Source: a virus. Taken from it: a stretch of DNA of 64,000 nucleotides. Within the stretch, counting starts at the first letter, position 1, and each line of letters starts with the position of its first letter. Below the pieces are notes generated by a model, which was not told where the DNA came from, did no database searches, and was given only the letters and a program-made list of their open reading frames with translations. A program made the translations under genes and the position numbers. Below, piece by piece: positions 12,341-13,537 of the stretch. Location: positions 65,134 through 129,133 of IMG/VR virus record IMGVR_UViG_3300032220_001761; one strand, written 5' to 3'.

Positions 12341-12378
12341 AAAACATTTTTTTGTTTAGAGTATTATCTATACGTTTG
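12341..12378 (+). promoter_or_regulatory. Host-type promoter of the tRNA/Pth2 operon
   Basis: AAAACATTTTTTTG, then 18 nt, then TACGTTTG, an exact TAnnTTTG -7 box. It ends 16 nt before the tRNA-like gene. Confidence 0.7.
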
Positions 12379-12394: not shown

Positions 12395-12475
12395 GGTCTT
12401 AGAGTTTAAACTACCATGGCTAGGTAGGTCCGCCTCTAAAACGGATAACATCGGGTTCGAATCCTGCTGAGACCA
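12395..12475 (+). tRNA. tRNA-like gene with CTA anticodon (candidate amber suppressor)
   Basis: The 5' GGTCTTA pairs with TGAGACC at 12468-12474 (7-bp acceptor with one G-T). The T arm has the classical GGTTCGAATCC loop context (one mismatch and one wobble in the stem). The anticodon arm TCCGC/ACGGA (12429-12445, one C-A mismatch) holds the loop CTCTAAA, which puts CTA at 34-36 after T33, so it would read UAG. The D hairpin CTACC-ATGGCTA-GGTAG is perfect, but about 7 extra nucleotides (GTTTAAA) separate it from the acceptor stem, which is atypical. The discriminator is A and CCA is not encoded. The two next genes have in-frame TAG codons, which supports the suppressor reading. Charging identity unknown. 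Confidence 0.6.
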
Positions 12476-12476
12476 C

Positions 12477-12574
12477 AAAAAATTCTAATAGTGTAAACGC
12501 TTAGCGGCCGGCACATATAGAAAGGGACGTATCCCAATCTTAAAGAGGAACGGTAAGGCCTCCTTGGAATTTTT
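12477..12574 (+). ncRNA. Possible structured RNA or leader between tRNA and pth2
   Basis: A 98-nt non-coding stretch. Outer ends AAAAAATTC and GGAATTTTT can pair; inside are GGGA-CGTA-TCCC, GAGG-N10-CCTC and two GGCC segments that can pair. It could be a processed leader of the pth2 mRNA or a separate RNA. No family recognised; pairing is by eye only. Confidence 0.3.
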
Positions 12575-12611
12575 AAATTGAAACTTTTTTTAAACCAAAT
12601 ATATAAGTAAC

Positions 12612-12953
12612 ATGAAGTAGATTAAATTTCAACAACCGAAACTTGTCGTTATAACCAGACAAGACATCAACCCAGGTTATCAAGTGGTACAGTCCACACA
12701 TTCAATCGCTGATTTCGCACACGACCATCCAGAGGTCTTCAGCAAATGGAAAGAAGAGTCAAACTCTATTATTTGTCTTTCCGCAAAATCTCAAGAACAT
12801 TTATTAAAGCTTTACGAGAAATATTCTCATCTAACTCAGGCATCATTGTTTTTCGAACCTGACGTAGACGAGTATACTTCATTGTGTCTTTATGGATCGC
12901 CAGAAATCCGTAAGGCCTTATCTCATTTACCCCTTTGTAAACCCCAAAATTAA
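12612..12953 (+). CDS. pth2: Peptidyl-tRNA hydrolase 2 with in-frame TAG at codon 3
   Basis: The conserved Pth2 N-terminus KLVVITRQDINPGYQVVQST, then HSIADFAHDHP and a C-terminal FFEPDVDEYTSLC segment, identify the family, which frees tRNAs from peptidyl-tRNA. The conserved region begins upstream of the first uninterrupted Met (12684). The only upstream in-frame ATG is at 12612 and gives ATG AAG TAG ATT AAA, an amber at codon 3. Either the amber is read through by the CTA tRNA encoded just upstream, or translation starts at the ATT after it. No T-rich or Shine-Dalgarno site decides the start. Length to the TAA stop (113 codons) is normal for Pth2. Lies 5 nt before the HD gene. Confidence 0.85.
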
Positions 12954-12958
12954 ATAAG

Positions 12959-13537
12959 ATGAATAAGTAGATTAAATTAGAGAAGCTCATCCAAGACATG
13001 AGCAATTGTGAACAGACAAAAGGACAATCTGTTCTACAACACGGTCAATCGGTCGAGAAATACCTATTTGACCTCATTAACCACCTTAGGTCTGGTGATC
13101 CTTTAGAGTATGAATGGAGACTACCAGATTGGGTATTAGAAAATAAGGATCTAATACTATCGTCACTTCCTGACGATGAAACACTCAGACTTTATACAGT
13201 TTATCACGATTGTGGAAAGCCATATTGTATAAAGATAGACGAGGAAGGCAAAAAACACTTCCCTAACCACGCTGAGATTTCTTATAATGTTTTCCTCCAA
13301 CATTTTGATAATAATGTAGCTGCGGAGCTAATTCGCAGGGATATGGATATCCATTTACTTAAAGCATATGGAGTTGGGGAATTTGCGTCAAGCCCATATG
13401 CTATCACGCTACTAATTACTGGTCTTGCAGAGATCCACGCCAACTGTAAAATGTTTGGCGGAACAGAAAGTACAGGTTTTAAAATTAAATGGAAAGCCAT
13501 CACCTCACGAGGCAAACAAATAATCACAAACAAATAA
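12959..13537 (+). CDS. HD-domain phosphohydrolase with in-frame TAG at codon 4
   Basis: HD signature: VLQHGQSVEKYL, then YTVYHDCGKPYC (HD pair) and FPNHAEISYNVF (second His), followed by LLITGLAEIHANC. Likely a metal-dependent phosphohydrolase; the substrate is not clear. The ATG at 12959, 5 nt after the pth2 stop, gives ATG AAT AAG TAG ATT AAA TTA, so an amber lies at codon 4 in the same frame as the HD domain. A fallback start is the ATG at 12998, which would remove 13 codons. The 14-nt context AAGTAGATTAAATT is identical to that in pth2. Stop TAA. Confidence 0.8.

What the first reader, a model, noticed from the sequence alone, without database searches (positions are those of the whole stretch)
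12395..13537. Amber-reading tRNA-like gene directly upstream of two genes with in-frame TAG near their starts
Seen: a plus-strand unit with a host-type promoter, a tRNA-like sequence whose anticodon loop CTCTAAA gives CTA, then pth2 and an HD gene. The pth2 frame that encodes KLVVITRQD runs back to ATG AAG TAG ATT AAA at 12612; the HD frame runs back to ATG AAT AAG TAG ATT AAA at 12959. Both TAGs lie in frame with the conserved domain. Known: some phages encode suppressor tRNAs and reassign stop codons. Here at least 14 other genes in the window end in TAG (for example 5805, 31405, 36121, 39068, 41159, 47302), so this is not a general recoding. Inference: expression of the tRNA-recycling enzymes is made dependent on the suppressor tRNA, a possible self-regulating switch.
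Basis: partly seen in the sequence, partly recalled or inferred. Interest (0 to 1): 0.9.

Follow-up and report, generated by a model that had tools for sequence, protein, structure and literature searches.

The report
Amber-gated Pth2/HD operon in phages
Many unrelated large phages place a stop codon just after the start of one particular gene pair and carry a special tRNA able to read that stop codon, which looks like a dedicated on-switch built from a tRNA, and it gives a target to phage suppressor tRNAs that had none.

Summary
The finding holds and is much wider than the window. The window (190.7-kb IMG/VR virus fragment, Bacteroidota-type phage) has a CTA-anticodon tRNA (12395-12475), then pth2 (ATG-AAG-TAG-ATT) and an HD gene (ATG-AAT-AAG-TAG-ATT). 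All 48 distinct pth2 relatives recovered from IMG/VR carry an in-frame TAG, never TAA or TGA, 1-8 codons after an ATG. In 47 of 47 assessable cases no ATG/GTG/TTG lies between the TAG and the first conserved strand. Isolates infecting Tenacibaculum, Cronobacter, Serratia, Pectobacterium, Acinetobacter, Xanthomonas, Stenotrophomonas and Salmonella show the same; mycobacteriophages have (A/G)TG-TAG-GTG. Some members carry a second TAG inside the conserved protein, so it must be decoded. A CTA tRNA was found in all 17 near-complete gated genomes examined and in none of three ungated relatives. Elsewhere TAG is an ordinary stop. Best reading: a dedicated tRNA plus TAG translation switch that makes Pth2/HD synthesis depend on the phage's own amber tRNA, probably as a delay or anti-leak AND gate. 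Decoding is strongly supported by sequence; its biological purpose is inferred. The XacN1 authors reported two CUA tRNAs with no identifiable target (PMC5852040); this supplies one.

The parts
12371..12378 (+). TACGTTTG, candidate Bacteroidota-type -7 promoter element (TAnnTTTG) 16 nt before the tRNA
   Evidence: read in the sequence; family consensus from general knowledge; not confirmed by the sigma-70 scan. Similar TAnnTTTG elements stand before the tRNA in L006, L008, L009
12395..12475 (+). tRNA with CTA anticodon (loop CTCTAAA), 8-bp acceptor / 4-bp T stem, 8-nt acceptor-D linker; followed by CA at 12476-12477
   Evidence: custom finder, sub-threshold Rfam tRNA match, covariation over 11 homologues
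12612..12614 (+). ATG start of pth2
   Evidence: sequence; in-frame ATG conserved in all 48 distinct relatives
12618..12620 (+). TAG gate of pth2 (codon 3)
12621..12953 (+). pth2-like frame downstream of the gate (110 codons plus stop)
   Evidence: Pfam PTH2 above cut-off; profile to archaeal Pth2 E 2e-10; AF2 pLDDT 94, Foldseek to Pth2 structures E 1.6e-6
12959..12961 (+). ATG start of the HD gene
   Evidence: sequence; relatives
12968..12970 (+). TAG gate of the HD gene (codon 4)
12971..13537 (+). HD-domain frame downstream of the gate (188 codons plus stop), PHROG 14850
   Evidence: PHROG 14850 E 7e-63; Pfam HD just below cut-off; AF2 pLDDT 96

Best explanation
This is a dedicated two-part translation switch: a phage tRNA with anticodon CUA, and TAG codons placed at codons 2-9 (in some phages also inside the protein) of one module, a Pth2-fold protein and an HD-domain phosphohydrolase. 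Ribosomes that start at the ATG stop at the TAG and release a 1-8-residue peptide unless the phage amber tRNA decodes the TAG; only then are Pth2 and HD made. SHOWN by sequence comparison: the in-frame gate, its restriction to TAG, the lack of an alternative start, internal TAGs that require decoding, and co-occurrence with the CTA tRNA. INFERRED: that the tRNA is charged and efficient in vivo, and what the switch is for. I think most likely it is a coherent feed-forward AND gate (mRNA and tRNA both needed) that delays and leak-proofs the module until the phage tRNA has accumulated; I give that purpose about 0.4. In several phages the tRNA lies just upstream on the same strand, probably in one transcript; in others it acts in trans.
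For: 48/48 distinct IMG/VR pth2 genes have a TAG 1-8 codons after an in-frame ATG, 0 TAA, 0 TGA, although TAA is 48-89% of ORF ends in these genomes; 47/47 lack ATG/GTG/TTG between TAG and the first conserved strand; the codon after TAG varies (ATT 34, GTA 5, ATA 4, GTT, ACA, ACT, AGC), so it is not a fixed nucleotide motif or an AUU start. HD: 18 of 23 loci gated by TAG, 2 fused to a gated pth2. Internal TAGs: LR756501 pth2 (FP-TAG-IYEQW, a column holding E/H/N/D/S/V in relatives), L265 pth2, and the HD of eight GAP32-type phages at residue 47 with changing flanking bases. Domain-order swap: XacN1 and CM1 encode HD-Pth2 and have the TAG before HD. pT24 encodes a Pth2-HD fusion with one TAG. 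CTA tRNA in 17/17 near-complete gated genomes against 0/3 ungated relatives. CTA tRNA within about 6 kb, always same strand, in 29/48 loci against 0.05 expected per locus. Mycobacteriophages Myrna, Cane17 and ScoobyDoobyDoo: promoter-like hexamers place the likely 5' end at (A/G)TG-TAG-GTG, with a CTA tRNA within 0.3 kb downstream of pth.
Against: No protein or readthrough data: everything is comparative. In mycobacteriophages a GTG follows the TAG directly and is the annotated start. The finder missed a CTA tRNA near 19 of 48 loci, many of them fragments. Absence in two of the three ungated relatives (Hallingskeid, LR745208) rests on a pattern search, only partly backed by scanning; RaK2 was scanned whole, but has a TAG 34 codons after an ATG that I could not interpret. 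Related phages are not independent observations. The atypical tRNA has no demonstrated synthetase. For the feed-forward purpose there is no expression-timing evidence.
Confidence: 0.87

Rival explanations
1. Non-AUG initiation: the TAG ends a short upstream minigene (M-x-stop) and Pth2/HD start at ATT, GTA or another weak codon right after it, in the manner of an infC-type AUU start.
For: ATT follows the TAG in 34 of 48 cases; M-x-stop minigenes promote peptidyl-tRNA drop-off, a topical link to a Pth (early drop-off: PMC10192219).
Against: The next codon is also GTA, ACA, ACT, AGC or AAC. TAA is never used although a minigene could end in any stop. TAGs inside the conserved domains cannot be bypassed this way. 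It does not explain co-occurrence with CTA tRNAs.
Confidence: 0.05
2. Feedback homeostat: Pth2/HD destroy or deacylate the suppressor (peptidyl-)tRNA, so readthrough sets its own level and protects TAG-terminated genes.
For: Gate, tRNA and a Pth2-fold protein sit together; TAG remains a normal stop in these genomes, so runaway suppression would be costly.
Against: RaK2-type phages keep Pth2 without gate or amber tRNA, so Pth2 has a role independent of the tRNA. The catalytic Lys of canonical Pth2 is not conserved. No biochemical data.
Confidence: 0.2
3. Translation-state sensor: readthrough reports the RF1 to charged-tRNA ratio, or tRNA damage by host defences, and turns Pth2/HD on under that condition.
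For: Gate position at codons 2-9 lies where peptidyl-tRNA drop-off is frequent (PMC10192219). Discriminator bases and acceptor ends of the CTA tRNAs differ, so the amino acid seems not to be what matters.
Against: tRNA cleavage would lower, not raise, readthrough; no data on RF1 levels.
Confidence: 0.2
4. Ordinary host or near-cognate readthrough, the CTA tRNA being unrelated cargo.
For: Low-level readthrough occurs in all bacteria.
Against: 17/17 against 0/3 co-occurrence, same-strand adjacency in 29/48 loci against 0.05 expected per locus; TAG only.
Confidence: 0.04
5. Sequencing error or pseudogene.
For: None beyond the stop codons.
Against: Same arrangement in dozens of independent assemblies and cultured isolates, with proteins otherwise intact and conserved.
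Confidence: 0.01

Closest known systems
Phage stop-codon reassignment (code 15, TAG to Gln, with suppressor tRNA; crAss-like and Lak phages)
   Same: A phage-encoded suppressor tRNA reads UAG inside phage genes; proposed in the literature to regulate expression of lysis and structural genes (PMC10879173, PMC9523058).
   Different: Here TAG stays an ordinary stop (3-19% of ORF ends). Only pth2/HD (plus one other ORF in LR756502) are recognisably affected, with the TAG placed at the N-terminus.
Local recoding by dedicated tRNAs (pyrrolysine UAG, selenocysteine UGA)
   Same: A dedicated tRNA decodes a stop codon in few genes while it remains a stop elsewhere.
   Different: No PylS/SelB/SECIS sought or seen; position is N-terminal and variable, the surrounding residues are not conserved, and the tRNAs have different architectures and acceptor ends, so no special residue seems to be required.
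Synthetic suppressor-tRNA feed-forward leak dampener (Ho et al., NAR 2020, PMC7969014)
   Same: Same logic: stop codon in the regulated gene, suppressor tRNA as second input, AND gate.
   Different: Engineered, not natural; the natural one is conserved across phages of three bacterial phyla.
Orphan CUA suppressor tRNAs of jumbo phages, e.g. XacN1 (PMC5852040) and RsoM2USA (PMC8504454)
   Same: Same type of tRNA; XacN1 is one of the gated phages here.
   Different: The XacN1 authors stated that they could not identify target genes; here the HD-Pth2 gene (ORF364) is identified as one. RsoM2USA gave no hit in my tblastn searches, so it was not tested.
Phage lambda bar minigenes and Pth (general knowledge; minigenes and Pth reviewed in PMC8012679)
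   Same: M-x-stop mini-ORFs and peptidyl-tRNA hydrolase.
   Different: Here the minigene is in frame with the Pth-like gene and only TAG is used.

Membership tests
Phage code-15 (TAG reassigned) genomes | TAG is sense genome-wide and largely absent as a terminator | tested here: not met
   TAG ends 3-19% of ORFs of 150 or more codons; no excess of long frames continuing after TAG except possibly LR756502
Phage code-15 (TAG reassigned) genomes | Phage-encoded CUA suppressor tRNA | tested here: met
   17/17 near-complete gated genomes
Pyrrolysine-type local recoding | PylS synthetase and tRNAPyl with its characteristic compact fold | not tested
   PylS was not searched. The CTA tRNAs are standard cloverleaves or an 8/4 type with a long linker; ARAGORN's label 'Pyl' follows from the anticodon
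tRNA | Cloverleaf with T arm, anticodon arm and acceptor kept by compensatory changes | tested here: met
   131/132 acceptor and T cells, 43/45 D cells paired over 11 sequences
tRNA | 7-bp acceptor, 2-nt acceptor-D linker, 5-bp T stem | tested here: not met
   window tRNA has 8 bp, 8 nt and 4 bp; Rfam score below gathering
Amber-suppressing tRNA | Is aminoacylated and inserts an amino acid at UAG | not testable with these tools
   needs a charging or reporter assay
Pth2 peptidyl-tRNA hydrolase | Pth2 fold and family profile | tested here: met
   Pfam PF01981 above cut-off, hmmsearch 2zv3 E 2e-10, Foldseek 2zv3 E 1.6e-6
Pth2 peptidyl-tRNA hydrolase | Catalytic lysine of the GKxxAQ motif | tested here: not met
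   aligned position is Y in the window and Y, Q, L, E or others in relatives; catalytic role of this Lys taken from general knowledge
HD-domain phosphohydrolase | H...HD...H...D metal-binding residues | tested here: met
   invariant H24, H79-D80, H100, D124, H128 in 18 sequences; Pfam HD 20.8 bits against cut-off 22; fold search gives only weak HD matches

The most novel reading that the evidence does not exclude
A natural class of gene control in which a phage's dedicated tRNA, not a protein or a riboswitch, is the regulator: stop codons at the start (and sometimes middle) of one conserved module make it silent until the phage's own amber tRNA is present. It is conserved across phages of Bacteroidota, Pseudomonadota and Actinomycetota that use the standard code, and in one sub-lineage it is reinforced by an amber-containing leader peptide overlapping a terminator-like stem (tRNA-operated attenuation).
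Probability: 0.6. Interest if true: 0.95.

Novelty: new variant of a known kind. Interest (0 to 1): 0.92.

Why it matters
Jumbo-phage genome papers repeatedly report CUA suppressor tRNAs in standard-code phages with no known use; the XacN1 authors looked for targets and found none (PMC5852040). This names a target that is conserved across hosts from three bacterial phyla. It shows that gene callers have mis-started or split these proteins (for example GAP32_397 to 399 and CBB_406 to 408). It proposes a mode of regulation that so far existed, as far as I could find, only as an engineered circuit. And it can be tested at once in a standard laboratory system (mycobacteriophages of Mycobacterium smegmatis mc2 155). 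The 11-member 8/4 tRNA family is also of interest to tRNA biology.

Tried and rejected
(1) TAGATTA as a nucleotide motif or genome-wide signal: not enriched in the window and only weakly or not at all across records; the codon after TAG varies. (2) Wider amber-gated regulon: scans of the held parts of 13 genomes give pth2 and HD repeatedly, plus background at the same level as TAA/TGA and one further likely case in LR756502. (3) A four-base UAGA codon: it would put pth2 out of frame; LR756504's tRNA that ARAGORN calls 'tcta' folds equally with a 7-nt TTCTAAC loop. (4) Opal gate in L290/L291: the TGA is the end of the overlapping upstream gene, and no TCA tRNA was found. (5) Opal or amber versions in Atu_ph07 (UCA suppressor, PMC6102473) and RsoM2USA (CUA): no homologue reached in tblastn, so untested. 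(6) Bacterial genomes: no relative found in the GTDB scan. (8) HD fold search gives no confident relative; the only sequence hint is the HD part of a poly(A) polymerase, E 0.007.

Full report
WHAT IS IN THE WINDOW. The window is part of a 190,674-base IMG/VR virus record. Its nearest DNA relative is a 634,780-bp huge-phage genome, LR745206. At 12395-12475 lies a tRNA-like sequence with loop CTCTAAA, anticodon CTA. ARAGORN and the Rfam gathering threshold miss it; Rfam's tRNA model matches it below cut-off (25.1 bits, E 0.0027). pth2 reads ATG(12612)-AAG-TAG-ATT and then 110 open codons; the HD gene reads ATG(12959)-AAT-AAG-TAG-ATT and then 188 open codons.

THE tRNA IS REAL BUT ODD. Searching with a structure rule (7-nt loop with CTA, anticodon stem, T arm, acceptor) found the same architecture near pth2 in L001, L002, L006 and L008, and in trans in LR745206 (507340) and LR756502 (609761). 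A divergent likely member stands before pth2 in L009 (seen by eye). Eleven sequences share an 8-bp acceptor, an 8-nt linker (consensus near ACTTAAT), a 4-5-bp D stem, a 6-bp anticodon stem whose loop-closing pair is a mismatch in 8 of 9 scored, a short variable loop and a 4-bp T stem. Acceptor and T pairs hold in 131 of 132 cells and D pairs in 43 of 45, with many two-sided changes. In other gated phages the CTA tRNA is a standard cloverleaf. The tRNA type, acceptor ends and discriminator differ between phages; what is constant is the CTA anticodon.

THE GATE IS UNIVERSAL IN THIS GENE FAMILY. All nine IMG/VR relatives with 58-90% identity show ATG-(1-2 codons)-TAG. A profile-based scan gave 60 loci, 48 distinct proteins down to about 35% identity; all 48 have TAG, none TAA or TGA, 1-8 codons after an in-frame ATG, most often directly after codon 2 (the script's single 'TAA' entry, L265, is a coordinate slip, since one search shows MNN-TAG-KLIIITR). 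In 47 of 47 no ATG, GTG or TTG lies between the TAG and the first conserved strand. The following codon is ATT in 34, otherwise GTA, ATA, GTT, ACA, ACT or AGC, so neither a sequence motif nor an AUU start explains it. For HD, 18 of 23 loci are TAG-gated, two are fused to a gated pth2 (MKKDLTTL-TAG-V), and three (L286, L290, L291) have no amber gate.

CULTURED PHAGES. Tenacibaculum phage pT24 encodes a Pth2-HD fusion behind MK-TAG-ITK and an annotated tRNA-Sup 2.6 kb upstream. Cronobacter GAP32, Serratia BF, Pectobacterium CBB and Xanthomonas XbC2 have M-(A/T)-(Q/H)-TAG at pth2 and another TAG at residue 47 of HD (ELDTG-TAG-GDPVLLEV). Eight such genomes keep it while flanking bases change. Their annotations split these genes into fragments. 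Acinetobacter ME3 has MT-TAG-IHENKK and an annotated CTA tRNA about 0.5 kb upstream. Salmonella phage Arash has ML-TAG-NKHWIY and a CTA tRNA about 0.5 kb downstream. Xanthomonas XacN1 and Stenotrophomonas CM1 encode the domains in the reverse order, HD-Pth2, and the TAG sits at codon 3 before HD: the gate follows the start of the module, not a domain. Mycobacteriophages Myrna, Cane17 and ScoobyDoobyDoo read (G/A)TG-TAG-GTG; hexamers TTGACA and TACAGT/TACCGT/TAGAGT place the likely 5' end of the mRNA at that (A/G)TG (leaderless; my inference). A CTA tRNA lies within 0.3 kb downstream of pth in each. There the annotated GTG start is a real alternative.

INTERNAL TAGs PROVE THE POINT MOST DIRECTLY. 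LR756501 (735 kb) has a second TAG in the middle of Pth2 (FAQEFP-TAG-IYEQWSK); the aligned column holds E, H, N, D, S or V in relatives, and two CTA tRNAs lie 2.3 kb downstream. L265 has another internal one (AKEWH-TAG-VSNYL), and the GAP32 group has one in HD. These proteins cannot be made whole without decoding TAG.

CO-OCCURRENCE. A CTA tRNA was found in all 17 complete or near-complete gated genomes I could examine: LR745206, LR756502, LR756504, LR756500, LR756501, pT24, GAP32, BF, CBB, XbC2, ME3, XacN1, CM1, Arash, LR756511, Myrna and Cane17. ScoobyDoobyDoo is an 18th by annotation. Three relatives with an ungated Pth2 gave none: RaK2 (whole genome scanned), Hallingskeid (pattern search plus 40 kb scanned) and LR745208 (pattern search). 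With 17/17 and 0/3 a Fisher test gives about 0.0009 by my arithmetic, but the genomes are related and not independent. Among the 48 IMG/VR loci a CTA tRNA lies within about 6 kb, always on the same strand, in 29, against 0.05 expected per locus from whole-genome scans. At a stricter threshold CTA (16 loci) exceeds each of the ten other anticodons tried (highest 9).

NOT A GENERAL RECODING. TAG ends 3-19% of long ORFs in these genomes. Genome scans show no other gene family with this arrangement, save one orphan ORF of LR756502 (MKNN-TAG-INYRTKD, 229 aa) 1.5 kb upstream of its CTA tRNA.

HOW IT WORKS. Shown by comparison: the ATG-TAG frame is under selection for TAG decoding, coupled to a CTA tRNA. 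Inferred: without charged amber tRNA, RF1 ends translation after 1-8 residues; with it, full Pth2 and HD are made. Because RaK2-type phages keep Pth2 without gate or tRNA, Pth2 does not exist to serve the tRNA; more likely the tRNA serves as regulator of the module. The design equals the synthetic suppressor-tRNA feed-forward leak dampener (PMC7969014), including, in some lineages, two TAGs. I therefore favour a delay or anti-leak AND gate (about 0.4) over a feedback homeostat (0.2) or a translation-state sensor (0.2). Four genomes (LR745206, LR756502, IMG/VR records of L222 and L225) add a short leader ORF, M-(M/N)-TAG-I-x-T-Y-...-P-P-stop. Its stop lies in the 5' arm of a stable stem (-25 to -30 kcal/mol) followed by a T-rich stretch, upstream of pth2. 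This looks like an attenuator opened by amber readthrough, which is inference.

THE PROTEINS. Pth2: Pfam PTH2 above cut-off, closest to archaeal Pth2 by sequence and fold, but the position of the catalytic lysine (GKxxAQ) is Y, Q, L or E; activity is uncertain. HD: PHROG 14850, itself partly a Pth2-HD fusion, with invariant metal-binding residues; substrate unknown, weak sequence similarity to the HD part of a poly(A) polymerase.

NOVELTY. Phage suppressor tRNAs and stop-codon recoding are known. I found no report of a dedicated amber gate on one conserved module in standard-code phages; my literature search covers only open-licence PMC papers. The XacN1 paper explicitly reports failure to find targets of its two CUA tRNAs. 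I rate it a new variant of a known kind (local stop-codon recoding), with a fair chance that it is a new class of regulation.

Noticed in passing
L018 (LR745206) -172 to -18 before the pth2 core; same in L019, L222, L225: Short leader ORF with its own TAG at codon 3, ending Pro-Pro-stop inside a terminator-like stem (CCTCCTTA.../...TAAGGAGG, then T-rich): possible amber-operated attenuator.
   Followed up: partly
L184 13590-14276 minus (LR756502, gate near 611.28 kb): A third amber-gated ORF (MKNN-TAG-INYRTKD..., 229 aa, no Pfam hit), 1.5 kb upstream of the CTA tRNA.
   Followed up: partly
window 12395-12475 and ten relatives: tRNA family with 8-bp acceptor / 4-bp T stem, 8-nt acceptor-D linker and a mismatched loop-closing anticodon pair (31-39).
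   Followed up: yes
window 12621-12953: Phage Pth2-like proteins lack the catalytic lysine position of canonical Pth2 despite a well-predicted Pth2 fold.
   Followed up: partly
Myrna NC_011273 33522-33593; Salmonella phage Arash OQ632216 49176-49247: tRNAs annotated as Ser and Phe have CTA anticodon loops (amber), so deposited annotations hide suppressor tRNAs.
   Followed up: yes
GAP32 JN882285 290126-291027 and relatives: Pth2 and HD genes are annotated as several hypothetical fragments because of the in-frame TAGs.
   Followed up: yes
L305 (RaK2) about 2886-2998: RaK2 pth2, ungated, has an in-frame TAG 34 codons after an ATG and 4 codons before its annotated ATG; meaning unclear.
   Followed up: no
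Agrobacterium phage Atu_ph07 (PMC6102473): Reported to carry an opal (UCA) suppressor tRNA and two putative peptidyl-tRNA hydrolases: a TGA-gated version would be a natural test; no homologue was reached by tblastn here.
   Followed up: partly
LR756502 whole record: TAG ends 19% of long ORFs, more than in its relatives (3-11%).
   Followed up: no
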